A stretch of DNA of 64,000 nucleotides from Physcomitrium patens (lineage: Eukaryota > Streptophyta > Bryopsida > Funariales > Funariaceae): the NCBI RefSeq assembly GCF_000002425.4, contig NC_037270.1:4489915-4553914 (forward strand), given 5' to 3'. This document shows, piece after piece, positions 17,934-59,861 of the stretch. The notes under the pieces were generated by a model that was given only the letters and a program-made list of their open reading frames with translations, did not search any database and had not been told where the DNA came from. Position numbers and translations under genes: made by a program. Position 1 is the stretch's first letter; each line of letters opens with the position of its first letter.

Positions 17934-19424
17934 ATGTCTGCGACGGAGGAGCTTTATCCTCTTCCGGACCGTAGCCAAGTTTTAATCCCGATGGAGTTCT
18001 GGCCGGAGTTTCTTGCGAACACCACCGGGACCGAGTTCCTTGCTGGAGGAATGGGGGGAATGGCAGGAGTTATCGCGGGCCATCCGTTGGATACTGTAAG
18101 AATTCGGTTACAACAGCCGCGGCTAATGGGATCTATGACGCCAACCACTGCGACAGGACTCATTAAGCACATTGTTTCAACCGAGGGGGCTATGGCACTG
18201 TTCAAAGGCATGGCAACACCCCTGGCCACAATAGCCTTTCAGGTTCGCAAATCACTTTTTCTGAGATTTTCCCTCCACGGATGTCTGTGTGCAGAGTTAT
18301 TTTTGCAGCTTGAAGGATCATTCAAAGCATAAAAATATCTATTTCATAAATGTTTATATGAAAATTTCAATAGAACTTATGGACAACTACTTACCTCTTA
18401 TGAATCTTACAGAATGCAGTCGCTTTCCAAGCCTACGCCCTCTTCTCTCGAGCCTTATCTGATCGTACAAGCCAAGAGGCTCTCTCGTATAGGAATGTGG
18501 CTATTGCAGGTATAGCAGCAGGTACCATACAGACGGGCATATTGACGCCTGTAGATTTGATAAAGATAAGATTGCAAATAGCCACGGATCGTCGGGCCCA
18601 AAGGAAAACTTTGCAATCTCCCCAAGCTGGACCGCTTGGACTTGTCCGGAATATTATGCGTAGAGAAGGTATTAAAGGGTTGTATCGCGGCTGGACGGCT
18701 ACGGTAATCCGAGATGCACCTAGCCATGCAGGTAGTACTTTTACTTATCCGCTGAAGTTCACATATGCAATAAATGACAGAATACCATGTTCAGACATGG
18801 CTTGCCATGCACGTCTTGTCATGCGCAATTCTGCGAGGATCTAGCTGTGAGAAGCGACACTGGCTCATCCTTCTAATTTCAGACAGTTTTGTATCATATT
18901 GAATGAATTGCCGTCGATTGTCTTTTTTGGACATATTGAGAAGTTTAACTTGTGAGTTCAGCTCTCAGAGCGCACTTCTCAGAAAAGAACAGCTCATTAT
19001 TTATTTATTAATCAATTTTTGTGTGATTCATTCTGCAGTATATTTCGGGACCTATGAGTACATGCGAGAGCTGCTGCATCCCGGCTGCAGAACGAATGGT
19101 GAAGAGTCCTTATCAACAATGCTCGTGTCTGGAGGTTTGGCCGGATCTCTGAGTTGGTTGTGTTGTTACCCTTTAGACGTTGTAAAATCAAGACTTCAAG
19201 CTCAGTGTGCAGGTGGCGCTCCTCCTCAATATAAAGGTATTATCGACTGCATCCGCACCAGTGCTAGTCAAGAAGGCAATGGAGTGTTTTGGCGTGGCTT
19301 GGGACCTTCATTAGCTAGGGCCTTTTTGGTAAATGGAGCTATCTTTTCTGCATACGAATTGTCCTTACGATATCTTACTCCTCGTTCTCCTAAAGACGAT
19401 CTAGGGTTCCAACCTATGTCGTGA
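17934..19424 (+). CDS. BAC2: Mitochondrial basic amino acid carrier, BAC2-like
   Basis: Model: join(17934..18242, 18413..18731, 19039..19424), 337 residues; intron phases 0 and 1, all GT-AG. It is a mitochondrial carrier (SLC25) of the inner membrane with three repeats; the signature PxDxxK/R occurs at residues 51-56 (PLDTVR), 149-154 (PVDLIK) and 254-259 (PLDVVK). The closest match I know is Arabidopsis BAC2: the opening MEFWPEFLA, TYEYMRELLHPGCR near residue 214 and the end of repeat 3 (FLVNGAIFSAYE) are shared. BAC2 exchanges arginine, ornithine, lysine and related amino acids, so a role in arginine catabolism and proline/urea metabolism under stress is likely. The ATG at 17991 (Met20) aligns with the Arabidopsis start and may be the real one; the 19 extra residues would be a moss extension. 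Gene appears intact. Confidence 0.9.
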
Positions 19425-25025: not shown

Positions 25026-25551
25026 TGTCATGGACATTCACATGTAAACTAGTAATTATTTAAATGATTAGATAAAAATAGATAAAAGTAGGTTAATTCT
25101 ATAATATCTTCTATAGAAGCTTTCTAGAAGCTTCATAGATATTGCTTTGATATTATAGGTGTCTATAATTAATTTTTTAGGTTAAAAACGTGATCAACAA
25201 GTTAGCCATGTACCACATATGTTGATAGCTTCAAGAACAAGCTAACTATATGGCTCACACATAGAAAACTTGCCTTGTAAGCTAAAATATGTGTCTTACA
25301 AAGTCAACACATATTAGAAATCTTATAGAATATTGTCACGTAGCTCCTAGTTAGATAATATATATAGAGGCAAGAATGAAGCCTTCTTCACTCTTGTCAA
25401 CTCATTTCTTGTTTTTACTCTAGATTCAAGAGTTTCTACTTTTCTTGACTTTTGGCAATAACCATTCCAGTTTCTTTTTAATATACATACTTCTTTATTT
25501 CTCTTTTGTTATACTTCTTTATTTATTTTCATCAAGTTCTTATCTTTGATA
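25026..25551 (+). repeat. Solo LTR of gypsy family A inside the copia element
   Basis: 526 bp running TGTCATGGAC to TTTGATA, homologous to the LTR at 2091-2628, flanked by CTTTT on both sides (25021-25025 and 25552-25556). The 5-bp duplication shows that a whole element inserted and later collapsed by LTR-LTR recombination. It interrupts the copia reverse transcriptase, so the copia element is the older one. Confidence 0.92.
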
Positions 25552-31239: not shown

Positions 31240-32905
31240 TTGGAATATCTTTTGGAATCATTGAAGCAATATATATTCATAGTTTGGAGCTATTTCCATG
31301 GTCTTTTCATGCCAAGATTTTTAAGCACAATGGAACAATATGAAAAAAATCAAATGTGTAAGGTATTTGTGGAGATACTTGAGAATGATCTAAAGTCTAT
31401 GTTGGAGCATTTAAGGCTTTATTGAAAAAAAATAACTTATTGAATAGAAACCAATGTATTAATTTGTGCAAGAAAATTAAATATGTTACAAAGTTTTTTG
31501 ACCACTTGATGACTTCCACCAATGATGGATTAGAATTTGGACCTTTATTGGATGAGTTATTTTTTATATTAAACAAATTTTATTTTTTAGTAGAAAATTG
31601 TGAAAAAAAAAATTGATATGAAGAAGCTATCTTCCAATTGAATAATAAAAAAACTTTTAGAGAACTACTTTTGGATTTAAAATGTTGTAATATAGCATTT
31701 AATATACTTTTGATGCATTATTCCAACAAAGTTGACAACAATATCTTTGCTACTTTTAATGTTACAATACATGATGATGAGGAAGAGAATGTTGAGTTTT
31801 TATAGAAGAAATTGATCAATATAAACAAAGAAGAAGATTTTGAATATTTTGGATTACAAAGATTTGGAGACTTGCTTTGTATAGAAAGAAAGTTGGATAA
31901 TTTGAAACTATTGTCATACATGAAGAGTCTTAAAATTACAAAATGCATACATGAAGAGAATTATGGTGAAGTTTATAAATCAAAGTGGTTGGAACTTATG
32001 TGTGCAATTAAAAAGATGGATATTGTAATTGATAAAATGTTCATCAAAGAAATGAACATTCTAGTAATTTTAAGCTATGCCAACTTGATAATATATTATT
32101 TTGCAATGAAAGGTAGTGCCAATGGAAGTATTGAGTCTTTTGTAACAAAAGATAAAAAAGAATATTTGTATATTAGAATGGAATTGATGCAAAATAATTT
32201 GAGCATTATATTAGAAGATAAAAAGAGGTATCTCATATTTTTTTTATTAAAATTATACAACAAATTGCAAAAGAAATGTGTTAATTGTATGATATGCATA
32301 TTGTACATTGAGATCTAAAACTTGAGAATATTTTGGTTAATATTGTGGAATCAAAGATTATGAATAAGATCATTCGCCATACTATTGTAAAAGTGATTGG
32401 CTTTGAAATGTCTAAGATTGAAGTTGGAAGAAATTCAAAAGCCATAGAGAATAATTACATTTATTGTGGTCTTAGATATATGGTTCTAGAGGCATTGAGA
32501 ATTAAATTTCAAATAATGGCAATGTATCATTTCTAAGCCAATATTTATTCATTTGCAATGATTTGTTCTAAAATTCATTTTAAAAAAAATCCATTTTATG
32601 ATGTTCATGAGATGAAAGGGATATTTGAAAGAATTGAAAAAGATGAAAGATCAAACTTACCTTCAAATTATGATGACTTCATTGAACTTATCCAAGAATG
32701 TTGGAGGTTGAATCTTTTGCATAGACCAAATTTTGCAAATATTTGTGAAAGATTGGAATTACTAAAGAAAAATCATTTAGTTGGAATTGATATGGAAAAT
32801 TCTCCAAAGTTTGGAATATCAAAAAACAATTGTCATCAAAATATAGAATTTCAGCAAATATATAATGGATTGCCATTGGTAAGACTTGTACAAGTAATCC
32901 ATTGA
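31240..32905 (+). pseudogene. Kinase part of a kinase-NBS-LRR (PNL) gene, decayed
   Basis: Readable in two frames. 31240-31640 gives a helical N-terminal region (LEHLRLY, NQCINLCKKIKYVTKFFD). 31812 onward is a protein kinase: damaged glycine loop (NYGEVYKSKW near 31960), the ATP-anchoring lysine in CAIKK (about 32007), the catalytic loop IVH-stop-DLKLENIL (about 32290-32330) where the HRD arginine is TGA, then VIGFEMSK (about 32397) where the DFG-type Asp is Gly, and the C-lobe end ECWRLNLLHRPNF (about 32695-32735). Such kinases precede NB-ARC and LRR domains in moss immune receptor-type proteins, and those domains follow here. The lost catalytic residues and stops mean no active kinase. Confidence 0.8.
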
Positions 32906-33094
32906 ATTGATTGTATTGATGGTATTTAAACTTCTACACACTCTTCTATGCTATAATAATATTTATATATCTTATTATAATTTTAAGTTAGTAAGTCTAA
33001 GTTGAAATGTAGTATATGCATTATTTTGATTTTATTGTTGATTTTTGGATGAATTTTATAATTGTAGGTTGATATATTTGATTTTTTTTTTTAG

Positions 33095-33276
33095 TGGAGC
33101 ACATTATTTATTACAAATAAGATCACAATGTCCAAATAAATTGAAGTCATTATATCTTATTAGAGTGAATGAAGTAGATAAGACCACATGAGCAAATGCT
33201 ATATTAATTAGTGTAAAAGACTTATACAATGCTTCACACTTAGTTGAGTGCATTGAAAGTGGAGGTGATTGCTATA
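33095..33276 (+). pseudogene. NB-ARC domain, first part with P-loop remnant
   Basis: After a T-rich 3' splice site (TTTAG ending 33094) an exon reads RVNEVDKTT at about 33162, a P-loop in which the GxxGxGKTT glycines are changed; a TGA follows directly. The frame then runs through KDLYNASHLVECIESGGDCY and is cut at the CTATA target site of the gypsy element. It resumes at 39622. Confidence 0.7.
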
Positions 33277-33820
33277 TGTTAAAGACACAAACTGGAAGAA
33301 GATACATAAACTTATGGAATCTATATCAAAAGGAAAGTGACAAAATAAAAGAAAATATATATATTCAAAGAAGAATTAGAATGGCTATTGCCAAAGACTA
33401 GAAAATATAAGATTCTTGAAACTAGATTAAAAGCAGGAAAGGAGTTGACAAGAGTGAGGAAGGCCTTACTCTTGCCTATGTATATACTATTTAACTAAGA
33501 ATTATGTGGCGACATGCTATAAGACCTTTAATATGCATCTAACTTGTAAGACACATGTCTAATTTGAAAGGCAAATTTCCTAAGTATGTACCATATGTCC
33601 AACTTGTACTACAAGTGGTCAATATGTCGACACGTGTCCTCCTTGTTGGCCAAGTTTTCAATCTATCAATCACCTATAGTCACGAATAAAGGCAAAGTAG
33701 TATCTATGAAGTTTTTAAGAAGCTTTCTATAAGATATTATCATATTTATCTATTTTGACTTACTTCTACCTATTATTATTATCTAGATAATTATCAAGAT
33801 AAATATGTATGTTCATGACA
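33277..33820 (-). repeat. 3' LTR of the inserted gypsy element
   Basis: 544 bp, TGTTAAAGACAC to TTCATGACA on the plus strand, next to the polypurine tract on its inner side. Same length as the partner LTR at 39073. Confidence 0.92.
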
Positions 33821-34469
33821 TTATCCCCCATTCTAAAGACAAGTTCCACAAAGATGGGTGATTACATGTTGATGAAGCCCAAGATGCGTCAAATTATATT
33901 TGCCACATACACTGATCATTTTTTCTTTTGAAGATAGTTGATAGGTCCTTTCAACCAATAATAATGTCCCATACTAAGGCAATAAGACCATCATAATATT
34001 TGATCATTATTAAGGCCTTCATAACTTCTTTTAAACAAAAAATTAGTAATACCATCAAGAATGGTTCCTACTTACAAAAGTATTACTAAACACCAGGAGT
34101 CCCTTTCAAGGTTGTGGTACTAAACACATTGTATCTTGCCATCTATTTGAAGAAGAACATGTCATTTTTAAGGATCTTCATTTTGATTTTGTTGTCTCAA
34201 AGATTGTAGTAGTTGTAATGTCTCATATGGCAGCTCAGCAAATGATAGCTCTTGAGTTGAATCTGTTAGTTGTTGGTTCTCCATCTCCTAAGCATTAAAA
34301 AATCCAAAGAAACAATGATACAAGATAGAATGAAATCTCTATTGGGTTTGCTTTGTTTTATTGCAAAAAATTTCTTGACTCTTCATTTTGGTTTTTATGG
34401 ATGTCATTGATGAAAAGCTTTAACTTTGGGTGATACATTTGCTAGATTCTTGGATGGCTCCTATGTACA

Positions 34470-37400
34470 TTCATTAATGTCATATCCATGCTAATGTACC
34501 AAATATTTTAACCTATTTTGGCACTGCCTTGAATCAAAGACTTCTTCCATTTTAAATTCTTTATTATTGTCCACTTCTATAGGAGGTGGTGGCATTTGTC
34601 TCCTTCTTTGTGTATCTATTCTCTTGTTTGTCTCAAGTAAAGACACATAGAACATAAGATAGATTTTCATAGACTCCGGTAGGTATAATCGATGAGCAAC
34701 TCGATTGATATGTTCACAAATAGAAAATAGTCCAAGCCTACGATAATCTAACTTATTACAATGATGAATAGTTTTAATATTATAAGAAAGTAATCATATC
34801 TTATCCTCTACATGGAATTGAGGTTGTTCATTGCAATAGATATCTGCATTGGCTTTTTGTCATTTTTGAGCTTTTTTTAATTGTGCCCTCATTCTTGCAT
34901 GTAGCTTTGACAATTGATTTGTCACATCTTCTCCCATAGGATTATCAACTTTTGAAAAGTCAAAAGTGTCAAATTCTAGATGATAACAGTAATTAACAAA
35001 GAAAGGTGTTTATTGAGTGAAAGAATGTACCAAATTATTGTAAGCAAATTCTACTAATGGCAAAAGAGTTGTCAAATCATCTTGTTGATAGTTGATGGTA
35101 CATCTCAAATACTACTCTAAAACTTGATTTATTCATTTTATTTGTCCATCATTTTGAGGGTGAAAAGCAAAAGATAGTTTTATATCCACCTTCAATATCT
35201 TGAAAAGGATTTTCAAAAATTTCAATAAAAACTGTGTTCTTTTGTCTGATATAATATCTCTTAGTAATCCATGATAGCGACAGATGTTGTTAAGCAAGAA
35301 TTTAACTATTCCTTCACCTCTGATAGATTTTACACATAGTACAAAATGTACCATTTTGGTGAAACAATCTACAATCACAAATAAAGAATCATATGAACTT
35401 GAAATTGGAAGATCCATGATAAAATCCATAGAGACAAAAGACCATGGTTGTTTTGATATAGGTAATAGTTAGAAGAGTCTATAAGATCAATGATAAAGAC
35501 TTTTTGATCTTAAACAAATATCACATATCTGTACAAATTCTTTAGCAATCTTCCACATTTGAGGCGACCAAAAATCTCAAGATATAATCTCCTATGTCTT
35601 ATTATCTCCAAAATGTCCTGTTAGAGGAAAATTGTGACGAGCTTCAAGAGCACCTAATTGAGCTTCTTCTTCTGGAACATATTAGCATCTTTTAAAATAG
35701 AGTAGATTTTCCTTAAACTCTAACTTCAAAGTATCTTGAGACTTAGAAGAATTATTTTTAATATCATAAACAAGAAGGTCTAAGGACATACTTGCTTGGA
35801 TATGCTTAAGAAAATTCAAATCAACAGATAATGTTGATTTCATTGCTTGGAGATGAAATTGTTTTGGCTTTAGTAAAATTGTCTTTTGTTGGTCAAAAGT
35901 TGCTTCTCCTTCTTTTGATGCAAGATAAGAATGTCTAGAAAGGGCATCAAACAAACCTTATTTTTTTCTTAGCCGATAAGTGATATTGAACTCAAATCTT
36001 GACAGAGACATGCTCTAACGAGCCTAGCGACAATTCAAAACACATTATTGACATGAAATACTTTAGATTCTTATGATCTACATATATAATGATTAGACTT
36101 GAAGCGCCTTCTAAATAATGATGTTATTCTTGAAAAGAATCCACGATTGCAAGAAGTTCTTTGTCATGGAACTTATAATTGATCTTGACTGCTGAAAATT
36201 TTCTTGAATGAAAAGCTACTAAATGAAGTTTGTCATTTGTTCCTATTTGTGACAAAATTGCACCTAAGACAAAGTCAGATGCATCTCTCTCCATAAAAAA
36301 TGCTTTAGCAAAGTCGAAACGATGCAAGTTTGGTTCAGAAATAAAAACTTTCTTCAAAGTTTCAAATGATGCTTCTGCTTCTTTATTCTATTCCAGCTTG
36401 TCTTCACAAGTTAATGATGTAAGTGGCACTATAACTTAAGAAAAGTTCTTGATGAAGATTTGATAATAATTAACAAATCTCAAAAAGTACTGTACATCTC
36501 TTATTGTTTTTGAAATCTTCCAATCTATGATTGTGTGAATTTTTTTAGGATCCATCATTAGACCATCGTTTGAAATGATGTATCTTAAGAAATCAACTTG
36601 AGTAGTATGGAATACACACTTTTCCATCTTGACGTACAATCCCGCATTTCTAATTTTTTGTAACACATGACAAACATGAACTTCATGTTCTTCTCCATTT
36701 TTAGAATAGATTAAAATATTGTCTAAATAATAAACAAAAAAATCATCTAGAAATTTGTAAAAAATATCATTTATAAGCTGTCGAAAAGAAGTTGATGCAT
36801 TCGTGAGTACAAAAGACATGACATTATATTCAAAATGTCCATACCTTGTTTGAAATGTAATTTTCCATTCATCTCCTTTTTTAATTGTACACTCCTTATA
36901 GATCTATTTTTGTATATATCTTAGCTTGATTTTATTGATCAAAAAGTCCAGATATCAAAGGGAGAGGATATCTATTCTTGATGGTAATCTTGTTGAATCA
37001 TCGATAATCTACACACATTCACAATGATCCATCTTTTTTCTTCACAAATAAAATAGAAGCTCCCTCAAGAGATTTTGAATGGCATATGAAATTCTTGGCT
37101 AAGTTCTCATCAATGTACTTCTTGAGTTTAGCTAACTCATTTTATTATAAACTATAGATTGGACCAAATAGGTACTCAATTCCTTCTATAAGATCAATTG
37201 AGCAATTATATGGATGATACTTTGGAAGAATATCTGCATTTTTTTTCTCAAAAATATCTTAAAAATCTTCATATTGACTTGGAATTTCACTTGAAATCTT
37301 TCCATCATTTAAAATGGGTGTGGTATAAATAACAAAAGACGGTCCTTCTTTTGCAACATGTAAAAAAACTTTTGTACCTATAAGTACAACTTTGGCTATA

Positions 37401-37490
37401 CTAAACTCATGGCTTTCTATTGGATTAGAAAAATTCTTAATGATATTTGAAAAAAAGTCAAGTTTATGAAAAATCCGATCTATCACAGGA
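34470..37490 (-). pseudogene. Gypsy pol: reverse transcriptase, RNase H, integrase, chromodomain (decayed)
   Basis: Reverse transcriptase: the block before the active site is readable (LPLISGLFDQ, AKIYTKIDL) and the catalytic box reads YYLDNILIYS at about 36720, with Asn for the second Asp. RNase H: SEPNLHRFDFAKAFFMERDA at 36345, HSRKFSAVKINYKFHDKELL at about 36200. Integrase: MDFIMDLPISSSYDSLFVIV from 35429, IISDKRTQF, and HPQNDGQIK where the catalytic Glu is Lys. The chromodomain reads EFKMEEVFDSRQCQNRLKYL near 34550. Protein is separated into pieces by many stops. Confidence 0.85.
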
Positions 37491-37499
37491 TTATACTTT

Positions 37500-38830
37500 T
37501 TTAACTACAATAAACCTAAAATGACTAGATTAAAAAGAGATCTAGTTATATTAAAATTTATGCAACTATTATGACTATTTATTACTACATTTATAGGAAG
37601 TGTTTCATGAATAACATCTCTAGAAGATAATGGACGACCGTTTATAATTTCTATGTGTACGGGTTTAGTTTTTCGTACTAACTATATATTATGACTTTTA
37701 ATAAATTCTTCATCTAAAAAATAAGCTAAGGCTCTCAAATCTATTAAGGCTTTGTGATTATTAGATCCTAAACGTATATCTATTATAAAACAAGGAGAAG
37801 GTTCTGAGGAGAGAATAAGACCTTTATTAAGAACTGTACAAGATTTCAGCCACATGATCTCTATTGTAGCTAGACAAATTCATTTTTCGACATGTTTTCA
37901 TCTTTGACAGTAATACTCCTCATTTTGTAGTTATATCATTTTTTAAAATAATATTGAGTTGTGTGCTTAGCTTCTCCACAATATAAATATAATCTTTCTT
38001 GATGATGATGAATTTTTTCTTATTTGGTAAGAGGTTTAAAACATATTGCATCAATTTGTATGTCTTCTACTTCCAAATGTTTAGATTGAAAAGTTGTTGG
38101 TGTTGTCATTAAATTCTACTAACATTGAGGTTTTCTTGTGTGATTCTCAGATCAAAAATCAAAAAGCCAATTATCATATTTCACAACAAAGTGAATTTCT
38201 TGACTCAATGTTTGAGGATCAAGTAAATTAAGCATCAATTTCTTTATTTCATATTGTAATTTGTACAAAAATTAGTTTATGAGTGATGTATCATCCTACT
38301 TGATATCTGTCGTTAATTGTCAAAATTGTGAAGTGTCTAATGTCATTCATTGATTGCCTTATCAGAAGATATAAATCTTGTTAGTTGCAACTCAAATTGC
38401 ATCATGTTTTCCATACATAGATCGAAACTCTATTAAGAATGCTTCCAAATTATCCAATATTGGATTATGTCATTCAAAAAATGATGAAAACAATGATAAA
38501 GCAAAACTTGAAAGTAATGTTCTAATAAACTTGACTTGAGATCCTTTAGTTGGATAACTTTGAGGTTGTAGTTCAATCACCAATTGTACTTGATTGATGA
38601 ATCCTTGAAACTTAGATCTTGTGCTATGAAACTTCTCAAGCAATCCAATTTTTGGTTCCTTGAAACTTGAACGATGTTCCATTGTAGGAACAATAGTATG
38701 GCTTAGTATAGATGTTGAAGCAATTCCAATCATCTCTATATTTTCATTGCCTAATATTCTTGTTGCTCCTTGTGGTGGTAGATTGAGTTGATGCATTGCA
38801 AGCATTAATTTTCTCATTTTTTCTTATATT
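37500..38830 (-). pseudogene. Gypsy gag and protease, decayed
   Basis: Gag is best seen at 38817-38470 (MRKLMLAMHQLNLPPQG ... STRSKFQGFINQVQLVIELQ). Further on the strand a damaged Cys-rich stretch near 37960 may be the zinc knuckle. The protease motif near 37740 reads ALIDLRALAYFLD, where family proteins have a DSGA-type active site, so the catalytic turn is lost. Confidence 0.65.
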
Positions 38831-39072
38831 TTAGCCATTGTATTCTTTATTTTAGCAAGCTTTGCTATGCTAGTACAATAAAAAGAAAGGTGTCTATTTT
38901 CACAAAATATAATATTTAAGAATCAAGAAAAAAAAATCTAGAAACAATATCAATTCAGAAGAGGATAATCCGCAACTTCTAATATACTTATGTCTTATTA
39001 AGAGAAAAGAAAAATCCACTCTTAATCAAGAAAGGACAAAGATCTGATATTATATGTGTACTCTTGTCTATT

Positions 39073-39616
39073 TGTCAAGGACACAAAGTAGAAGAAGATA
39101 CATAAACTCGTGGAATTTGTGTCAAAAAGAAAGTGACAAAATAGAAGAAAGTATGCATATTCAAGGAAGAATTGGAATGGCTATTACCAAAGACTAGAAA
39201 ACATAAGACTCTTAAAACTAAACTAAAAACAAGAATGGAGTTGACAAGAGTGAAGAAGGCCTCACTCTTGCCTCTATATATACTACTTAACTAAGAACTA
39301 TGTGGTGACATGCTATAGGACCTCAAATATGTGTCTAACTTGCAAGACACATGTCTTATTTACAAAGCAAGTTTCTTAAGTGTGTGCCATATGTCTAATT
39401 TGTACTTCAAGTGGTCAACATGTCGACATGTCACTTCTTTATTTTCTAAGTTTTCAACCTATCAATCACCTAAAGACATGTATAAAGGAAAAGCAACATC
39501 TATAAAGTTTCTAGAAAGCTTTCTACAAGATATTATCATATTTATCTACTTTGAGTTACTTCTACCTATTCTTATTATCTAGATAATTATTATGATAAAT
39601 ATGTATGTTTGTAACA
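39073..39616 (-). repeat. 5' LTR of the inserted gypsy element
   Basis: 544 bp, TGTCAAGGACAC to TTTGTAACA on the plus strand, followed by the CTATA duplication. The TATA-like run (TATATATAC, about 39284) and the adjacent inverted repeat GACAAGAGTGAAG...CTCACTCTTG (about 39242-39271) are kept in slightly decayed form. Confidence 0.92.
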
Positions 39617-39621
39617 CTATA

Positions 39622-40500
39622 TAACTTCTTGCAATATTTTAGAACAATTTAAAGTCAAATGAAAACAAAAGGATATAAAAAAAGATCAAAAAATGTTGAA
39701 ACCATTCTTAAATGAAAACAAAATCATCTTGATCTTTGAAGATGTGAAGAATCAAAGTCAAATTGAAGATATTATATTTATGGATGACCTATTTGCTAGC
39801 AATGATAGCACATTAATTGTAATAACTTGAGATTCAAAAATAATAAATTATTATGGTGATAAAATTTGTAATATAAATATTAAAGAACTCAATGAAGAAA
39901 CAAGTATGAAGTTGTTTATTATATATTCTTGTGACCAAGAAAATCTATCCAATGAACTTATTGAAGTTGACAAAAAAATTATAAGAGCTTTTAATGGCCT
40001 ACCATTGAATTTAAAAGTTATGAGAACATTTTTAAGAGTGAATAAGAGATTGAGATGTTGGAAGCAAGCTTTATACAAGTCAAAAATGGGAAGAGAGTTG
40101 GATGGAGATGAAAACAATAGTAACTATAAGATTTGAAAGATATTAAGAGTCAGCTTTGATAATTTGAAAGTTGAAGAAAAGAGTATGTTTTTGGACATAT
40201 GTTGTTTTTTTTGTAGTGATGTGTGTTTACAAGGCATGTCAAAAGAACGAGCATTGTAAATATAGACCAATAGTCAAAAAAACATATTTGAACAAGATGT
40301 AGAATTTATATTAGATATATTGATTAATCAATCATTGCTAAAAGTAGACAAAGATGGAATTATAAGAATACATGATCAACTACTAGATATGGATAGAAAT
40401 ATTATTGAAAAAGAGATGGAGTATAAATACACAAGAATATGGAAGTTAAATATAGATCCATTTCACAAATTAGCAAACAAGGTAATTTTACTTAACTATT
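39622..40500 (+). pseudogene. NB-ARC domain, second part
   Basis: Continues the frame broken at 33276. Motifs in order: Walker B-like ILIFEDVKN (about 39733), LIVIT-stop-DSK (about 39815) where plant proteins have T-x-R-D and the Arg is TGA, GLPLNLKVM (about 39995), the RNBS-D-type MFLDICCFF (about 40181), and IIRIHDQLLDM (about 40358), the MHD-type motif with Ile. This is a STAND ATPase switch domain of plant immune receptors; the damaged P-loop upstream and internal stops show it is not functional. Confidence 0.8.
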
Positions 40501-40740
40501 AATTAAATGGCATGCAAAAAACTATTGATAATAAAAAAGAATCATTATATAAAGATTAGATTTTTTATTTAGTTATATACATCATATAATATTTATTATA
40601 TTTTTGAGATGAATGTTGATGTAAAGATATAATATAATAAAAATTAATCTTGTATTATAATTAGATTTATATGTACATTAAGTATATTTTTAATGTAGAA
40701 ATTCTAATCTAATTTTGTATTTGATTATGTTGATTTATAG

Positions 40741-41810
40741 TTGGAGAGATTATTTTACAACAACACAAATAACAACAATATAAATGAAATAAGAAATACT
40801 TCTTTTTCATCACTTAGATTTTTAAGTTATAATATTGGTGTTTTTGCTCCCAAAATTATAATAAGGATACTAAGCATCTTCTTTATGTTAGCAAAGTATT
40901 TTCTTAGTTTGAAATTTTTTCTATTAGATATATCATGGGAATATAAATTAAAAGAAGAATTAATAGACAAAGCATTACAAATGCTACATGACAAAGATGT
41001 TTGGACAAAGTTTAAGAGTTTAAATGTCTTTCAATTGAGAAATTATTCTTTTTTAGAGAATTTTCTAAATTTATTCTTTAGAATTCCTACATTATTGAAA
41101 CTTGACTTAGAAAGATGTTCAAACTTAATTATGCTACCAAATGAATTGGAGTATATATTTTTTTTGAAGATACTTAATTTAAAAGATTGTAATAGATTAA
41201 GATTATTTCCAACATCAATAAAAAGTCTTCTTGCTTTAAAAAATCTTAACATTAGAAGGTATTCAAACTTGACATTATTTCCAAATGAATTGGGCAATCT
41301 TACATCTATGACTACCTTTGACATCAGCTAGTACTCGAGCTTAACATCATTGTGGAATGAATTAAGCAACCTCACATTTTTTACTATCTTTAATATAAGC
41401 TAGTATTTAAGCTTGAAATCATTGCCAAGTGAATTAGACAACCTCACATCTTTGACTCACTTTGATATAGAGGGGTGCTAAAGCTTGATATTATTACCAA
41501 ATAAATTTAGTAATGTCACATCTTTGTCTACCTTTAAATTAAATGGGTGCAAACAACTTAACATCATTGCCAAATGAATTAGGTAACTTCACATATTTGG
41601 CTATCTTTAATATAAGTCAATTTTTAAGCTTGACATCATTACCAAATGAATTAGATAACCTCACATCCTTGATTATTTTTAAATTGAAAAGATGCAAAAG
41701 CTTGACAATATTACCAAATGAATTGGACAACCTCAATTCATTTGATTTGTGGAATTTAAAGTCCATTAAATTATTTTCAACCAAATACTATAACCAATCA
41801 TGTAATTAAT
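40741..41810 (+). pseudogene. Leucine-rich repeat part of the PNL gene, decayed
   Basis: A 3' splice site (GATTTATAG ending 40740) opens an LRR exon. From about 41110 the repeats of 24 residues are regular: LIMLPNELEYIFFLKILNLK, then several with SLPNELxNLTSLTxFxI, the pattern typical of moss NBS-LRR proteins. A 196-codon frame is open to the TAG at 41329; a second block is open 41543-41809. Stops (TAG at 41329 and 41401, TAA at 41479) interrupt the rest. LRRs would sense ligand or restrain the switch in a living copy. Confidence 0.85.
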
Positions 41811-43140
41811 CATGATTGTATATTCTTTTGGTATGAAAGATTTTTAATACTTAATCTAAGTACTTGATTGTAATAATATATTATTTTTTAAAGAAAAATA
41901 AACAAAGATGTATGAAGAATTCATTGATTATAAAAAAATTATTTATAGAAGATGGTATCATTGGAATAAATTATAGAAAATAATTAATTTGGTTGCAAGT
42001 ATTGCAACTAAGACTAAAAAATAACAAAAATGACATAAATACAATGTAATTTAGTTGCTAGTATTTATATTTTAAATAATAATTAAAAATAAGGTAGAAG
42101 TTGATACATAGTAAAAATTTATATGTATATGTATTAGAAAATATTTGTATATGAAAATAATAATTTATTATGTATATTTTGATCAAAAAAATAACAAATA
42201 TAGTATAAGATAATTTTAGACTTATATAGTTATAAAAATCATTTATAAGGTTTTTGTTAAATAAACACTCTTATCTTTTGATTTTTGGAAAAATTTAAGA
42301 ATTTAAAAATAAAAAATATATATTTAAAAATATTAAAAATATTTATTTAATTTTTTATAGAATTAATTTAAAAAAAAATTGATGAATCTTTTATAATGAA
42401 TTTCAAAAAAAAATTATTATTAATAATACTTATATCATTTAAATAAGTAGAAATAAGTCAAATTATAAATATAGATTAGATAAACAAAATCTTCTTCAAG
42501 AAATATTAATGAAGTTTTTTAGATGTAGATTGGATTAATAAGTGTGTCATGTGAATGTAGAAGCTTTTCTAAAAAATTGATATTTCTAAAGAACTAGAAT
42601 AGCAGAGTTATATAACATTGGCATTTGACCATTCATCTTGTAGTCTTTTAGAGCCTTCTATATCGTCTTTTTGTGAACTAGTATACATAGAAGCAAGATT
42701 GAAGTCATTCTTGGACTCATCAATGCTATTCTTTTACTGCAATTTTGATTTAAGATTCTTTAGTTTTTTTGTATTTGGCTATAGTTATTTTAATACCTTT
42801 CTATTTTAAAGATTCACTTTATTTTATTCTTCTTATTAATATCTAATATTAAATGCAAATATTCATAGCACACAACTATACAATATTACAATCAATTTTT
42901 TTTTAAAAAATTATTTAGTAATATCAAATGTACAACATACAATGTACAATGTACAAAAAGAATCAACTGGTGAAATTTTTTACATTTCTCAACATTAGAA
43001 CTCATTTAACATATGCATTAAAAGAATAATTCTGCATTGCCCATTGCTAGAATTTGTTTGTAAAACTGTCAACCATCAAAGATAACTGCATTGTGTAAAC
43101 TTCCTTTCAAATATAAATTTTAGACACAATTAAAAACACA
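41811..43140. other. AT-rich sequence downstream of the broken resistance gene
   Basis: No domain is recognised in any frame. Composition stays AT-rich until about 43150. Confidence 0.5.
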
Positions 43141-43348
43141 CACACAGAAGAGGTTCCTCTTTTCAATTGAACCAGCCTATTGGGCACACAACCGCTTCAT
43201 CTTTGGCGCCCTGCATCATGATTTCTCATGGATTTGCAATGTTACTTGCTTTTGTCATCTAAAAGGTTTAGGGTACAGGGTTCTAGAGAAAACTTTCCAC
43301 CAACAGTATAGATAGGGATCCTAAGGAAGGCCTAATTTAACCACCAAT

Positions 43349-43969
43349 TCACTTGTAATTGGCAGAGAGAAGAGATCCTCTTCCGAGAGCAATGAAGGGA
43401 TTGTTTCTTTTACACCCTTCTGTTGTGGAGCTTAAATGCTTCGCAACACAGTTTATGCCTTGTTTTGGTCCAACAACATGCCTAGACCTAAATGACAACA
43501 TTCTTTCGAGAAAAGAAAAAAGAAAAAAGAAAAAAACCTTTTGAGAAACATAGTCCTTCATGGAAAAAATGCTGCATAGTTCACTCTCCTCCATGTCCAA
43601 AAGTGCACCGCGCCGCAGTGTGCTTGCTTGCGAAGCTTCAGTGAGATAGAAATCCAGCACTAAGGGTGGAGAATTGCATTTCGTTGCTTGAATGAAAACT
43701 ATGGTGTGTTCTTTTATGATCATCTCGCCATCTCCAGATTGTGGACCAGTCTCCGATCTGACCACACTACCATTCGTCGACATTACGCTGAGTCGCACAG
43801 CCTGCCACATGACTGGTGGGCCATTCTGCAGGGTGCCGATGCCTATAGAATTGGCGGTCCCATCAGTTCTCGGATTTAGTTGTGTGATGCGGCTTCGGAG
43901 AACCATGGACCTGTCGGAGGTAACACCGTCACTTGCATTTTCTTGCACTAGCAGCGGGTTTCCTGGCAT
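43349..43969 (-). CDS. Possible coding exon, unassigned
   Basis: A 206-codon frame from ATG at 43969. The first 115 codons (MPGNPLLVQENASDGVTSDR ... PPLVLDFYLTEASQ) have balanced composition and codon use; the last 90 include a poly-Phe stretch from a GAAAAA-type tract and look non-coding. A CAG/G site just before the second codon could be an acceptor, so this may be an internal exon of a minus-strand gene beginning right of 44000. No family recognised. Confidence 0.3.
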   Translation of the reverse strand: MPGNPLLVQENASDGVTSDRSMVLRSRITQLNPRTDGTANSIGIGTLQNGPPVMWQAVRLSVMSTNGSVVRSETGPQSGDGEMIIKEHTIVFIQATKCNSPPLVLDFYLTEASQASTLRRGALLDMEESELCSIFSMKDYVSQKVFFFFLFSFLERMLSFRSRHVVGPKQGINCVAKHLSSTTEGCKRNNPFIALGRGSLLSANYK

Positions 43970-45820
43970 GAGTGGTAAGTGGTGTGGTTTTCAATTTTAC
44001 AGAACCGTTAACCAGGTGGGTTAGGGTCAGGACTGGATGATTCTGGCTTCGCAAGGTTCACGTGGAGTTAAGGAACATTGCACTGATCTTGTCGGATTCG
44101 AAGACAAGGGCGTGTTCAGGATGCTGGTTTGCTCCAGCGTAAGATCTGGGTTTTTGGACTTTATCTTACTGGCCACTGTTTCTCTTATTGGTTGGGTGAA
44201 GCGCACAGCCATCGTAGTGTTTTACTCAATGAGCATATTCTCTTGGACCAATCTGGATTTCAGGGCTATATTTATCCTCTTGTCAGTACAAGAATATGTG
44301 ACACATGTAACGCGCTCCAAGTTCAGTGACCTTCAAGAAGTACAGATGCTGCTTGTGACTTTTAGTTTTTGAAGTTTAAACTGAGCCAATTAAGTTCACC
44401 TTTCTGGGATCTTTACACCTATTTTCAATGTGAAAAAAACCCGTTACGACAAAAACCTGTTACAATAATTATATAATATTCTCTTTAAAAATCAATATTT
44501 TAAATTCAACTCCATGACGCCTACGAAGTAATTATAACTAATGGTTAGACTTAACTTTCCGTCTTTGTGGCATGATCTCTGTTTTCCATCAGATCTTTAT
44601 TTACGAAGGCCCTAAAAGAAGATCTGACTATGAGATCTTCTTTTGGGGCCTCCCTGAGCATCAGAACTTTGGATAGGACGGCCCCAAAAGCAACCAGACT
44701 GTTATTCTCACGTTGCCTGTCTGTACCACATAACTGTCCTGAATCGAAGATTCAAACCCATGCAAGAGCGATTTTCTCTCTGATTGACATCATTCACCCG
44801 GTTGAGCGTTGATGTGAGATTTAAACAGGGACGGTAGTAATATATAATTTAAGCAAATGTCTTTTTGCACAAGCGTCAATCAGGGGTGTTCGTTACATGT
44901 GTGTCTTGGCATATGATTGATTGACTTAATCAGTGATGCAAAGCCTTTATGGTGAAGATTTTACCAAGTAGCCAATGAAAAATTTAGTAGCGAAAGTACA
45001 TCGCCTTGTGTATAGATCGTGATAGCATTCATGGTGACGACAGTTCATTTAGCAAAACAAGCCCACAGACTCCCCATCAGGCAACGCCTTCCGTAAGTGT
45101 TGTCTAGTGAATTGATGTGGTGTTGTGGTAATTAAGCAGTGAAGTTGACAGAGTCTGCACTCACTGGATACCACTTTGTCCCAATTGGAAACCTCTAACC
45201 ATGACCCATTGCTCACCAGCCTCTTCGCTCAAGCAGGGAAAATTCTCGAGATCTCTGTCTATCAACATGGCCAAACATTCCTCAACCAATAGCACATTGA
45301 GTGTTTACTATGATGGAGATCGAAGAGAAAGCTGCACAATGCTGGTGGAAATGTACAAGATGGAGATTCATGAGTACAACGCCGTGTAGAATTGATCTTT
45401 CCAGTATGTAATTAAGAGCTAAATAGCTGCATTGATGTTGAGCAGGACTTTGCCGACTCATACACGTGTTCGAAGTCTGAAAAAGTGGTCTGAGGTACAT
45501 ATATATGAAATGCAATGAGGAATTGCAATGAGGAATTGCAATAGGATGGTCTTCACTTTATTAAGAGCTTTGTTAAAACATACGTCAAACAAGTACGATG
45601 CATGTACTTTATATCCACGCTCTTGTTAGAGTGTTCTGGTCTTTGAAAAAAATGCAGCTAAAGTTTTATGACTGCTATAGTGGCGATCACTTAGTACCGA
45701 CATCCAGTTAGGTGGGAAGAATGTCCCCTAGTACTTTCCATGAACGCACTTGCCCTCTCTGTCATTCATATCAACACATTCAACCCACACGTTAGTTCTC
45801 GATTAAAGTAAACACAGAGG
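43970..45820. other. Intergenic, no recognised gene
   Basis: Moderate-GC sequence with short frames and one AT-rich patch at about 44430-44510. Nothing with a recognisable domain. Sequence left of 45824 is expected to include the 3' UTR of the minus-strand cysteine-rich gene. Confidence 0.45.
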
Positions 45821-45823
45821 AAA

Positions 45824-46725
45824 TTAAATAGGTAGATCACCCATAAAACTAACTGAATTGGGTTTTCTACAAGCACACTAGTAGAGCAAAATCATACATA
45901 TGACGACTGATTGAAAAACAAGAGAACGACCTAGAAGCATGAAGCATGGATAAAATCTCAACACAGAATGTAACAATTGTTGGCGTGGAATACCTGCAAA
46001 CGGGTTTGCCTCCATACTTCTTGTAGACTTTGCATTCATTGTCACATTCTCCACAGTTTTTGACATCTGAATACAGACACACCTCACAACCATCCTCGAT
46101 ATCCTTGTTGCAGTCAGCGTATCCGGGGTTGCACGTAATTTCGCACTTGCCTTTGTAGCACTTAGAGCTGGAGTTTGGATACTTCCCGCACCTGATCACG
46201 GCACATTTGTCCAAGTACACGCACTTGCCGTGTTCGCACGACGCGATTTCATAATATTTTGGTTTGCATTCTACACCACATTTGCCGCAATTCTCCACAG
46301 TCTCCAAGTCGGTCTCACAGCCATCGTAATATTTGCCGTTGCAGTCGCCGAATCCTTCATAGCAAGAACAAGAGCACTCTCCATACTTGCATGTGCTGTA
46401 TCCATTCGCAGGCCGAGGACAAATGACCCCAGCACAACTGCCACTACCACCGTTTGCAGTAGCCGAACCTGAGTTGAGGGACCAGAGATCATGTCAATAG
46501 TTTTCTCCACTAAAAAAATACCTCATACCACATTCCACAATGCCCGATTTCTGAAATAGCTCGCTGGGATTAGTTTTCGAACGCTTCGGTACACTCCAAG
46601 AATCGCATAGAGTAATGCAGCCAAATATTAATAGGGACACTGACTCACGAATTACCTATGAAGAGCACTGCTAGAGTAGCAGCTACTAAGAGCACCGCGG
46701 GTTGCCATTGCTGAAAGGGCCCCAT
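45824..46725 (-). CDS. Small secreted cysteine-rich protein with DGCE/NCGxC repeats
   Basis: Model on the minus strand: 46725-46656, 46468-45994, 45866-45824; 195 residues, both introns GT-AG. Exon 1 encodes a signal peptide (MGPFQQWQPAVLLVAATLAV, then LFIG) and its phase-1 end joins cleanly to exon 2. The mature part has 25 cysteines and two related units: CKYGECSCSCYEGFGDC, DGCE, ENCGKCGVEC (about residues 48-90) and CYKGKCEITCNPGYADC, DGCE, KNCGECDNEC (about 121-164). The NCGxCGxxC pattern is known in plant STIG1-type proteins and, with the DC-N-DGCE lead, in repeat proteins of myxobacteria. Likely an apoplastic disulfide-rich protein; function unknown. The last exon is short (14 codons); reading into intron 2 would instead add about 40 hydrophobic residues. 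Confidence 0.75.
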
Positions 46726-48237: not shown

Positions 48238-51200
48238 TCATGTCGATTTCGGCTTCGATGCAAGTGGCCTCGATTCAAGCAGCTCTTCCGCAATCCTAGT
48301 TTCCTGCACCAACACATTTTGATTGTTCGTGGAATCGCTGTTGGAGGATTTGAAATTACGTCTCTGTCTGAAGGACTTGCGAGAAAGCGCCCCAGTCAGC
48401 TTCTTTGAACTTTGTGTTTCTTCAAGAGGCTCGATGATTTTTCCAGGAACAGGATCCACAAGTGATAAACGAGACGAGACATAGGCCATAAGCTCTTCCC
48501 GATTAGCAAAAGTGAAATCCAGATGAGCGAACCCAAACTCCGCATATGATGCTTGACAACCCCCACTTTTCAAAGCTTCGTAGTGTTTTCTGACCATACT
48601 TGGTGGAATAAGCTTATCCCTCTGGCCTCCTACTAAATCCACAGGAATATCAATCACATTATAGTTCGCCGCAATGTCCAGCGGGTACGGACTGCCATAG
48701 GCCTCAAAATTCAACTCTTTGCTTCCAAAATTGTACATGATGAATCGTTTAGCTCGCATCATCTGTGATAAATGGACAGCAACTCGAACCGATACCCCAG
48801 GCATATTATTCATGTTGTAGTGCGACACACCGATTGCTCCGACCCAATTAGAGCTATCTCCTCCAATGACGTAGCTAAGTACAGCTTGGACTAGACCTCC
48901 AACCGCAGGATAATTTTGGAAGTCTCTAGATAACTTGTTGAATAGCGCTCGAAAGAATCTAGTGGGTATATATATGCCAGGCATGAGAAGATTAAGGACA
49001 GGAGCTAAAAGCGGGATGATAAACTGTAACACTTTAAGAGAAAAAGGAGCATCCTCATGAAACCCAGCTGGAGATAGAAGGATAAGTCCTGAAAGATAGT
49101 GGGGCCTCTTTGCTAGGCATCTCGTCACAACATATATCAACATTGCAGCACCGCCCAAGCTGTGTGCTATCCCACACAGCGTGTAAGGAAAATTCTTGGA
49201 ATCATATTTCACAGATTGAGAAATTTCACCATACTCAATCTCTGAATGTACTGGACCTCGTAACTCCAACATTTTGAGTTCGTGTATCTTGGTTATCATA
49301 GCTGGAATGTCTTCTATGCCATGCTCGTTCACAGTAAAATCCCAGTATCTACAGTTACAACACAACGCTTACAAACAATATACAATATACAAACAACAAA
49401 AACAATTCTTCACTTACCTGCTTTGTGAGCCTGAGATGCACAGAATTCATAGCTGCGCTCATGATCACTCATTAGGAGTGTAGTACTCGCAGAATTTAGT
49501 GATCCAGTTCAACAATTTATCATCCAGCATAGGAGACATTGAAATATGGAAAGAGAGAAGAACATACTTCTGAGGTGAGATATGTTTGTTCGCGTGTTCT
49601 CTTGCCGCCAAACCCCGCAGATTGCCCAAGTATACATCATAACCTGCATAGAAGTGATAGGTTAGTTGTACATCACAAACGATGGGTACCAACTTGGCAA
49701 TGGAAGGATGCCAAAGTTGGCTAGCCAAAGTTCAATTGCACAATACCCTCCCTACTGCGATCTACAACTGCAATGTTCACTGGAGTCACAATTAGAGGTC
49801 TGAAGCAAGTTAGCTTTCCAAGTTGGATGATTGATGTCACAAATTTCAGACCTTTCAGCGACTGGAGAGCTAACAAAAGAGAAGGAACAACTTTCATACA
49901 TAAACACCCGCATATATTACCTTGGTCAAAAGCTGCAAAGGCTTGAGATCCAACGACTCCATTAGAAACCCAGCTGTCATCAAATAATTCAAAAAGTAAG
50001 GTAGACAACATTCCAAAACTCACCATTCAGTACTAGAAAAGCTGCGGACTAAACATTGTTCTGCAAAACAAGACTTAAACTTTCTGAGCTTACTGAACTT
50101 ACTGCATCTAAGAAAAGTAATTCCCGAAAGATTTCTGAGACTATGAGCCATGAAATAAGGTCCAATTCAGTCCAAAGAGTACAATCCTATCTAAATTCAT
50201 GATCCTTTACTCCAACAACGACAAGAAAAGGCACTCATCTAGTTGCAGGGCACATGTAGATCCATAAAATATAACGAAAGATAAAGATTTAGCTAACCTA
50301 ATTGAAGAATCTAGAACTCCATGCTGTAGAAATACAACCTTCCTTGATTCTCGCCTACAAGGAACAGTAATACATTATGCAAGAATTATAGTTATCTCTT
50401 TATGAGCTTTCATAAGAATACATGAAGCAACTCAAATAGTTCATTGCACAATAAGAATAATTACAAAGATGTGTACATATATTCCTTGTAAGATATAAAA
50501 TTGATGATATATTCATTGCATTAAAACCAAAACTGCAATCATTCTAACCAAATTCCATCACAGAAGGATGATGACGATGACTCCCAAGACAGACATAACT
50601 CAACCGCAAAGCTGAACAAGAGGTCCTAAGTATCTCGAATGAGATGGCTGACCTGGGTATCCTTTCAAGGAGGAGTATATGACCATCCTCTGTAGTCACA
50701 CGATATGCTTCGTATGGATACCTGAGGCATGTAAAAAACAGATAAGCTCACCTCACTGTAGATCATAGGACACACGATAACGAGAGCAGCCGTGTTAGCA
50801 GATCATGAAAAACTACTATAGCAGTTGATTGCAAACGTATGGTTCATTGGAAATCACACTGAAATCACGTATCTCTTGAGTAACATGAAGACCTAACAAG
50901 AAAAACCTAACAATCAAGATAGATTGCAAGTACTATAACGGAAAAAAGAACTCTGTAATGATACTAGAAGGTAAGCTGCACTAGAGTGTAAGATCATTTA
51001 CAAAAAGCAAGAACTAACCCCAAACTTGTGATGATATCCTGACATGTGCGGTTATCTGTATTCAGAGGATGATGTGGAACCTGCTTCTGCTTTGGAGCAT
51101 CGGGATCCGAGTTACCTAAAGTGGCCATGTCTGCGAGGTCTGTGTCATCATTGTAACTCGTATCACGAAAGAAAGCCCAGTAGAGAAACTCTCTAAGTGT

Positions 51201-56683: not shown

Positions 56684-57224
56684 TATCAAGGACATGAATC
56701 TCAAAGAAACAGAATCCTCAATATACTCTTCTATCATTAAAGAGAACTAAAAAGTCACTCAAAAGATGATGTAATATTAATTATAATGGCTATTGCCAAA
56801 AATAAGAACATTAGAAAATCTTAAAACAAGACTAAGACTAGAAAGGCATTGACAAGAGTGAAGAAAGCTTCACTCTTACCTCCATATATACTATCTAACT
56901 AAGAGCTACATGGCGATGTCCTATAAGACCTCTAACATGTATTGACTTTGCTAACCACATATCTTATCTTGCAAGGCAAGTTATTTATATATGCACCATG
57001 TAGTTGGCTTGTTCTATAAGCTACTACATGGAGATAACTTGTTCTATAAGCTACTAATACATGGTTAGCTTTTTGGCCAAGTTTCTAATACATCTAAAGT
57101 TAAAACCGCATCTATGAAGCTTCTAGGAAGTTTTTCTAAAAGACTTTATGAAATCATTCTATATTTATCTACTTCTACTTAATTATATAAGTAACTATTA
57201 AGGTAATTATATATGTCCTTGACA
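56684..57224 (-). repeat. 3' LTR of gypsy family A (third minus-oriented copy)
   Basis: 541 bp, TATCAAGGACAT to CCTTGACA on the plus strand, with the conserved inverted repeat GACAAGAGTGAAG/CTTCACTCTTAC at about 56850-56880 and a TATATATAC box at about 56884. Confidence 0.88.
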
Positions 57225-57859
57225 TTACCCCCCCTTCTAGGGACGAGTTCGATGAGGAGTGGTCTTCATATGTTGAAGAAGTCAAAGATGCAGTGAATTG
57301 TATTTGCTACATACTCCGATCTTTGCTCTCTTTGAAGATGGTTGATAGGTCCTCTCAACCATCTTTAGTGTCTCATACTAGGACGAGAAGACCATTCTAT
57401 TATTTGGTCATTTTTGAGGCCTTCATAACTTCTTTCAAATAAAACATTTGGAACACCGTCAGGAGTTGTTCCTACCTCTAATAAAATCACTAAACATTGG
57501 GAGTCTCTTCTAAGGTCGTGATATCAAACATGTTGTATCTTGCCATCTATTCAAGGAAAGATATGTTGTTCTTGAGGATCTTCATCTCAATTTTGTCATC
57601 TTGAAGGTTGTAACAATCGCAATGTCTTGTCTAGTAAGTCCACAAATGAAAGCTCTTGAATTGAATCTATTGGTTGTTGGTATTCTATCTCATCACAAAT
57701 ATACAAAAGCTACAATGAAAGATAGAAGGTAGAATATTATTTTCTTTTGATCTCATTTCTTTTATAGCAAAGGTTTGCTATTCTTCATCTTAGTTTTGAT
57801 GGATGTCGTTGATGAAAGACTTCAACTTTTTTTGTTGCATTTGTAAGATTCTTTGATGG

Positions 57860-58868
57860 CTCCCATGTACATTTACTATTATCATATCCATGCTAATGAA
57901 CAAGATATTCCAACCTATTTTAGCGCCACCTTGAATCTAAGACTTCTTCTACCTCAAACTCTTCATTATTATCCACTTTTATCGGAGGAGGTGGCATTTG
58001 TCTTTTTTCCAAGATATTCACTATCTTATACGGCTGCAAAAGAGACACATGAAATATATGGTGGATCTTCATAGACTCCAGTAGATGTAATTGATAGGCA
58101 ACATGATTGATTTATTTAGAAATAGGAAAAGGTCCCAACGTACAATAATTTAATTTATCACAAAGACGAGAAGTCTTGATATTATGATAAATTAACCATA
58201 CCTTCTCACTCATATTATATTGTGGTTACTCCTTGCAATAGGCATCCGCATTGATTTTTTGTCATTCTTAAGCTTCTTTTAATTGTATCTTTTTTTTTGC
58301 ATGTAGCTCTAACAAGCGATTTGCTAAATCTTTCATCATAAGATTATCAACTTTTGAAAAATCAAAAGTATCAAGACGTGGATGATAACCATAATTGACA
58401 AAGAAAGGTATTTATTGAGTGGAAGAATGTACTAAATTATTATATGCAAACTCTGCCAATGGTAAAAGAGTTGTCCACTCATCTTGATGATAGTTGATGG
58501 TACATTTTCAAATAGTGCTCCAAAACTTGATTTATCTATTCTGTTTGTCCATTAGTTTGAGAATAAGCTAAAGAAAGCTTTATATCCATCTTTATAATCT
58601 TAAATAAGATTCTCCAAAATCTTGATACAAATTGAGTCCTCCCATCTGATATAATATCCTTTGGTAATCCATAATAGTGATAGATATTGTCAATGAAAAG
58701 CTTAGCTGTTTCTTTACGTGTGATAGATTTTGTACATAGTACAAAATATTTCATCTTGGTAAAATGATCTACTATCATGAATATAGAGTCATAAGAACAT
58801 GAGATTAAAAGATCCCTCATCAAATCCATAAAAACAAAAGACCATAGTTGTTCTAGAATAGGTAACGG
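57860..58868 (-). pseudogene. Gypsy integrase and chromodomain region, decayed
   Basis: The integrase core is the best kept piece: 58829-58536 reads MDLMRDLLISCSYDSIFMIV ... IISDGRTQFVSRFW ... SLAYSQTNGQTE, so the DDE residues of this part (Asp, Asp, Glu) are all present. Toward the left, chromodomain-like sequence near 57960 and the 3' UTR follow with stops. The catalytic polymerase part is absent, cut off at 58868. Confidence 0.8.
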
Positions 58869-59767: not shown

Positions 59768-59861
59768 ATGGTGAATCGGGATTTTTAAATGAAGTGGGTT
59801 TGAATACTCTTGACTGTTTTGTAAAATCGAGTTACGTTTGTTTCAAGCTTTCTCATTGTCA

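What the first reader, a model, noticed from the sequence alone, without database searches (positions are those of the whole stretch)
31240..41810. Kinase-NBS-LRR gene split inside its NB-ARC domain by a gypsy element with exact target duplication
Seen: kinase motifs (31812-32740), a P-loop remnant (33162), then 6340 bp of LTR element with CTATA on both sides, then Walker B, GLPL, MHD-type motif and LRRs in the same order as a plant receptor. Known: mosses carry a kinase-NBS-LRR class that is absent from most seed plants. The broken copy records a kinase-NBS-LRR allele with its full domain order.
Basis: partly seen in the sequence, partly recalled or inferred. Interest (0 to 1): 0.75.

Follow-up and report, generated by a model that had tools for sequence, protein, structure and literature searches.

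The report
Moss immune gene broken by retrotransposon
A moss immune-receptor gene of a known type (kinase, nucleotide-binding domain, leucine-rich repeats) was split by an old retrotransposon and is now a decayed pseudogene; the case is clean but ordinary.

Summary
One moss kinase-NBS-LRR (PNL) gene relic spans 31240 to about 41809; Physcomitrium patens PNL proteins align along it in order. A Ty3/gypsy LTR element (33277-39616, antisense, 544-bp LTRs) sits inside the NB-ARC domain between exact CTATA duplications, and the flanks rejoin in frame without a gap. Kinase and NB-ARC parts independently place beside the same P. patens protein, P0003 (support 91 and 99), so they are one gene. The kinase/NBS intron appears to be phase 0, the published PNL signature. 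The gene is dead: 14 in-frame stops in 1076 mapped codons, frameshifts, and 68 of 277 family-invariant residues changed, against 0-10.8% in the relatives. LTR divergence (K 0.171) predicts about 17% changed and 10-18 stops: the stops fit, the residues are somewhat in excess. Death at about the insertion is likely, but earlier decay is not excluded. The host looks like a moss other than P. patens. The PNL class and LTR insertions are known kinds. New member of a known kind; interest low. The own-genome search never ran.

The parts
31240..32878 (+). exon 1 relic: PNL N-terminal region and protein kinase domain; start codon lost, stops and at least two frameshifts
   Evidence: tblastn of P0001/P0002/P0010; Pfam PF07714 on 32537-32905; stops listed
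32879..33067 (+). intron 1 relic (189 bp, GT-AG, phase 0) between kinase and NB-ARC; boundaries assigned by eye
   Evidence: splice-site bases; relatives' proteins; BLAST alignments run on to 32893 and resume at 33090, and a second GT at 32894 is also at a codon boundary; Xue et al. on phase
33068..33276 (+). exon 2 relic, first part: degenerate P-loop region up to the insertion; apparent frameshift in a T run near 33080-33092
   Evidence: tblastn to P0001-P0003 from 33090; reading frames; motif table
33272..33276 (.). target-site duplication CTATA, left copy
33277..39616 (-). Ty3/gypsy LTR retrotransposon relic, 6340 bp, antisense to the gene
   Evidence: LTR pair; Pfam RVT_1, RNase H, rve, SH3_Tf2-1 on the minus strand
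33277..33820 (-). 3' LTR of the element (544 bp, TG...CA)
34491..34793 (-). Tf2-1-type SH3 domain remnant after integrase
   Evidence: PF24626, 38.8 bits, cutoff 30
35133..35468 (-). integrase core remnant
   Evidence: PF00665, 27.1 bits, below cutoff 32.6
36124..36387 (-). RNase H remnant
   Evidence: PF17919, 86 bits
36436..36903 (-). reverse transcriptase remnant
   Evidence: PF00078, 56.7 bits
39073..39616 (-). 5' LTR of the element (544 bp), 85.1% identical to the other LTR
39617..39621 (.). target-site duplication CTATA, right copy
39622..40481 (+). exon 2 relic, second part: kinase-2, RNBS-B, GLPL, RNBS-D, MHD-type motifs; five in-frame stops
   Evidence: tblastn; PF00931 on 39831-40136; stops and motif table
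40482..40740 (+). intron 2 relic (259 bp, GT-AG, phase 0) between NB-ARC and LRR
   Evidence: splice-site bases; homologous segments on both sides
40741..41809 (+). exon 3 relic: leucine-rich repeats with 72-bp spacing; stops and a frameshift near 41534-41559; the end is taken from the last ORF
   Evidence: repeat family D1; last ORF; tblastn to P0001/P0002; stops in frame 1

Best explanation
This is a dead copy of one moss kinase-NBS-LRR (PNL) immune-receptor gene. A Ty3/gypsy LTR retrotransposon integrated, antisense, into exon 2 between the P-loop and kinase-2 motifs of the NB-ARC domain, and repair of the staggered cut duplicated CTATA. Shown here: gene identity, collinearity, one family for all parts, exact duplication, in-frame junction, stops and frameshifts on both sides, equal decay left and right. 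Inferred: the insertion removed function in an intact or nearly intact gene, and the rest decayed neutrally. At a rate used for P. patens elements the LTRs give roughly 9.5 million years, with large uncertainty.
For: Search with the right NB-ARC piece: 14 hits, all with a Physcomitrium patens name, best E 1.6e-123 at 70% identity; 13 of 14 with kinase domains. Collinearity with P0001/P0002, break at the same residue on both sides. The junction of 63 nt of each flank reads through one CTATA into a segment that matches P0001-P0004, P0010 and P0012 without a gap; the text pattern did not match the other 8 of 14. Kinase and NBS trees both give P0003 as sister (91, 99); identity-rank rho 0.91 kinase/right NBS (13 proteins), 0.76 kinase/left NBS (11), 0.86 left/right NBS (12). 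Kinase/NBS intron in phase 0. Invariant residues changed 68 of 277: left 46/182, right 22/95, Fisher p 0.77. Expected from the LTR divergence: about 17% changed and about 10-18 stops in 1076 codons; observed 24.5% and 14.
Against: 24.5% changed exceeds 17% (binomial p 0.0013). Adding about 5% ordinary divergence removes the excess (p 0.17 against 22%), but decay that began before the insertion would explain it too. The expected stop rate was computed on the make-up of invariant residues, not on the gene's own codons. The window's residue before the P-loop Lys is Asp, as in P0003, which hints at an already weak lineage; yet the window shares only 3 of P0003's 19 private changes, against 3 of 16 with P0001 and 4 of 15 with P0014. 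A first rank test on bit scores, confounded by protein length, was weak in all five pairings (rho 0.12 to 0.48, p at least 0.105). No empty site and no transcript could be examined.
Confidence: 0.95

Rival explanations
1. The gene was already a pseudogene, or in decline, when the element landed; the insertion is a bystander in an AT-rich, transposon-rich stretch.
For: Invariant-residue change of 24.5% exceeds the 17% that the LTR divergence alone predicts. The stretch 32001-44000 has 28-29% GC against 38-45% in most gene-bearing stretches of the window, and other relics of the same element family lie in the window. Most P. patens NBS genes are shortened (47 of 65). P0003 and P0014 also have a changed residue before the P-loop Lys.
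Against: Stop density (14 in 1076 codons) is no higher than expected since the insertion (about 10-18). Decay is equal on both sides. No excess of changes shared with P0003.
Confidence: 0.35
2. Kinase and NBS-LRR parts are unrelated fragments brought together by rearrangement or misassembly.
For: Little: the parts lie in several reading frames, and a bit-score rank test between parts was not significant.
Against: Same proteins, same order, no gap at the junction, same sister in two trees, strong identity-rank agreement.
Confidence: 0.02
3. The element acts as a large intron and a receptor protein is still made, or one half survives as a truncated gene.
For: PNL genes lacking one or more domains are common in P. 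patens (39 of 45), so half-genes are annotated as genes.
Against: In-frame stops and frameshifts on both sides, with lost catalytic motifs in the kinase and P-loop.
Confidence: 0.02

Closest known systems
PNL (PK-NBS-LRR, also kinase-NL or Pkn-NLR) class of mosses; P. patens members P0001, P0002, P0003 here, PpC24 in the literature (PMC3991678)
   Same: Domain order, phase-0 kinase/NBS intron, sequence along the whole length (kinase 57-71%, right NB-ARC 66-74% identity to P0001-P0004, P0010 and P0012)
   Different: This copy is interrupted and full of stops; it appears to come from another moss than P. patens
Ty3/gypsy LTR retrotransposons of plants
   Same: LTRs with TG...CA, 5-base duplication, RT-RNase H-integrase order, Tf2-1-type SH3 domain
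   Different: Only fragments of its reading frames remain; no chromodomain among the Pfam matches of the 7 element pieces scanned; not compared with named moss families such as RLG1
Roq1-type TIR-NLR receptors
   Same: Best solved-structure match of the relative P0001 is Roq1, over its NB-ARC part (7jlv, 224.9 bits); a window piece matches the Roq1-type winged-helix model weakly (17.3 bits, below cutoff 24)
   Different: Kinase instead of TIR at the N terminus

Membership tests
PNL (kinase-NBS-LRR) class | N-terminal protein kinase domain | tested here: met
   PF07714 26.5 bits (cutoff 23.1) on the C-lobe piece and alignment to PNL kinases; the N-lobe piece alone had no Pfam kinase hit
PNL (kinase-NBS-LRR) class | NB-ARC domain in the same gene, after the kinase | tested here: met
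   PF00931 27.4 bits (cutoff 23.5); collinear with P0001/P0002
PNL (kinase-NBS-LRR) class | C-terminal LRR | tested here: met
   P0001/P0002 align to 40741-41559 at 60-62%; Pfam: none for one piece, LRR_14 below cutoff for the other
PNL (kinase-NBS-LRR) class | phase-0 intron between kinase and NBS | tested here: met
   GT-AG 32879-33067, donor at a codon boundary; boundaries assigned by eye from relatives, no transcript; an alternative donor at 32894 would also be phase 0
PNL (kinase-NBS-LRR) class | NBS clusters with PNL rather than TNL, CNL or HNL | tested here: inconclusive
   13 of the 14 relatives found carry a kinase domain; no outgroup classes were put in the tree
PNL (kinase-NBS-LRR) class | functional open reading frame | tested here: not met
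   14 stops in 1076 codons, frameshifts, lost HRD, DFG and P-loop motifs: a pseudogene of the class
Ty3/gypsy LTR retrotransposon | paired LTRs with TG...CA and a short target duplication | tested here: met
Ty3/gypsy LTR retrotransposon | RT - RNase H - integrase order | tested here: met
   minus strand 36903-36436, 36387-36124, 35468-35133; the integrase match is below Pfam's cutoff, but a Tf2-1-type SH3 domain follows it
Ty3/gypsy LTR retrotransposon | primer-binding site and polypurine tract | tested here: inconclusive
   a GGGGGA tract lies next to the 3' LTR; a TATCAGA-like site lies about 20 nt after the 5' LTR; both judged by eye against recalled motifs
Ty3/gypsy LTR retrotransposon | autonomous coding capacity | tested here: not met
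   among ORFs of at least 80 aa, the longest inside the element is 155 aa

The most novel reading that the evidence does not exclude
The element struck a working receptor gene of the P0003 lineage in a moss outside P. patens, and the copy is a calibrated fossil: element age, stop density and loss of invariant residues all date one loss-of-function event, and the P0003 lineage would predate the split of the two mosses.
Probability: 0.4. Interest if true: 0.3.

Novelty: new member of a known kind. Interest (0 to 1): 0.15.

Why it matters
It documents one route by which moss PNL genes can become the shortened genes that dominate the class. It also adds a PNL sequence, dead but with its full domain order, that appears to come from a moss other than P. 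patens. It changes no general view of NLR evolution.

Tried and rejected
Own-genome searches for intact paralogs and the empty site never ran: the genome search answered busy or unreachable (11 of 11).

The host was not identified. The carrier gene's three best hits (79-91% over three exon pieces) have no name, and the best named one is Sphagnum compactum (60-76%); 6 of the 28 hits were aligned in full.

A rank test on bit scores was confounded by partial proteins and was replaced by identity per aligned residue; both are reported. In one search the leave-one-out control counts near-identical relatives against each other, which lowers their values (0 for five of 14); with three groups of near-duplicates left out of their own comparison the values are 0.5% (1 of 191) to 10.8% (13 of 120). 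Dating uses a rate from a passage of PMC7466625 for P. patens; transitions dominate (63 to 18), so the age may be inflated. Two-gene and misassembly readings were rejected. No dN/dS was possible, since no coding DNA of relatives was held.

Five literature searches listed 20 of 226, 20 of 56, 20 of 102, 12 of 64 and 8 of 8 papers. No listed title or abstract opening reports a moss PNL gene broken by an LTR element; that does not prove absence.
Full report
What was checked. All are present. The direct-repeat search and blastn show a 544-bp LTR pair, 33277-33820 and 39073-39616, both TG...CA, 85.1% identical with no gap, and identical CTATA outside both ends. The element is exactly 33277-39616. 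It reads on the minus strand: reverse transcriptase (56.7 bits), RNase H (86 bits), integrase (27.1 bits, below the cutoff of 32.6) and a Tf2-1-type SH3 domain (38.8 bits), in the Ty3/gypsy order. Among ORFs of at least 80 aa its longest is 155 aa, so it is a relic.

One gene. A search with the right-hand NB-ARC piece, among 2965 candidates, gave 14 proteins, all with a Physcomitrium patens name, the best at E 1.6e-123 and 70% identity; 13 of 14 carry a kinase domain. Compared with the window by tblastn at E 1e-4, every row of these proteins falls within 31240-41800. P0002 runs through it in order: N-terminal region from 31240, kinase to 32881, P-loop region ending at 33275, NB-ARC resuming at 39618 at the same residue, then LRRs from 40741; P0001 does the same from 31704. 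Joining 63 nt of each flank with one CTATA reads in frame and matches six of the 14 relatives without a gap; the text pattern used did not match the other eight.

Do the halves belong to the same family? Identities of the relatives to the kinase part and to the right NB-ARC part rank alike (rho 0.91, 13 proteins); kinase and left NB-ARC give rho 0.76 (11 proteins), left and right NB-ARC 0.86 (12 proteins). An earlier test on bit scores was weak in all five pairings, because many relatives are partial proteins (rho 0.12 to 0.48, p at least 0.105). Separate maximum-likelihood trees of kinase and NBS, without outgroup classes, both place the window beside P0003, with support 91 and 99.

Gene structure. 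A GT-AG intron at 32879-33067 (189 bp, donor at a codon boundary) separates kinase and NBS, and another at 40482-40740 (259 bp) separates NBS and LRR. The first was placed by eye from the relatives' proteins: BLAST alignments run on to 32893 and resume at 33090, and a GT at 32894 would also be phase 0. Xue et al. 2012 (PMC3352924; abstract and sections 4 and 12 read) give a phase-0 intron between kinase and NBS as distinctive of PNL genes. They count 45 PNL genes in P. patens, of which 6 are complete.

State of the gene. In the mapped codons of the receptor (1076 codons, within residues 1-1090 of P0002) there are 14 in-frame stops, with three more further into the LRR (frame 1 near 41329, 41401 and 41479) and frame changes near 31305-31347, 32222-32273, 33080-33092 and 41534-41559. 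The catalytic-loop HRD, the DFG and the P-loop motifs are lost (motif names HRD, DFG and MHD recalled). Of columns invariant among relatives the window breaks 68 of 277 (24.5%); leave-one-out values for the 14 relatives are 0 to 10.8%, or 0.5 to 10.8% when three groups of near-duplicates are left out of their own comparison. The left side breaks 46 of 182 and the right 22 of 95 (p 0.77), so both halves decayed alike.

Timing. LTR divergence is K2P 0.171 with 63 transitions and 18 transversions. Applied per lineage it predicts that about 17% of invariant residues would change, and about 10-18 stops in 1076 codons, the stop rate being computed on the make-up of the invariant residues. The stop count fits; the residue count is higher (p 0.0013 against 17%), which ordinary divergence of about 5% would cover (p 0.17 against 22%). 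With 9e-9 substitutions per site per year, the rate in a passage of PMC7466625, the age is about 9.5 million years. The rate is for P. patens, and the transition excess suggests methylation, so this is rough. The data fit a gene intact until about the insertion, but do not exclude earlier decay. The window has Asp before the P-loop Lys, as P0003 does, yet shares no excess of P0003's private changes (3 of 19).

Host. A mitochondrial carrier gene at 17934-19418 matches three proteins from unnamed contigs at 79-91% and Sphagnum compactum at 60-76% (6 of 28 hits aligned in full). No row named P. patens appeared. With the PNL match this points to a moss other than P. patens. The species was not identified, and the own-genome search tool did not answer in 11 of 11 tries.

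Known or new. PNL genes (PMC3352924; PMC3991678, abstract and section 11 read), kinase-NLRs in non-flowering plants (PMC11218826, passages) and transposon insertions within or close to P. patens genes (PMC7466625, passages) are described. This locus is a clean further example.

Noticed in passing
window 3-2735, 25026-25500, 56779-58865: Further relics of the same gypsy family at about 68-77% identity, including what looks like a lone LTR near 25026-25500.
   Followed up: partly
window 59814-63998: A second, better-preserved gypsy-type element with long reading frames (up to 605 aa, RT and RNase H by Pfam) running off the window end.
   Followed up: partly
window 10558-11679: An ORF of 373 aa with a repeated module of about 104 aa (64% identical) and no Pfam match at E 0.01.
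   Followed up: partly
window 17934-19418: Mitochondrial carrier gene (some hits are named BAC2-like) in at least three exons, useful for identifying the host.
   Followed up: partly
window 48238-49368, minus strand: Alpha/beta-hydrolase (lipase-like) gene piece; best hit an unnamed contig at 78%, best organism-named hit Diphasiastrum at 61%.
   Followed up: partly
window 45867-46493, minus strand: Cysteine-rich ORF of 208 aa with spaced Cys repeats and no Pfam match at E 0.01.
   Followed up: no
window 33150-33206: The residue before the P-loop Lys is Asp in the window and in P0003, and Glu in P0014, so a non-canonical P-loop may recur in this receptor family.
   Followed up: partly
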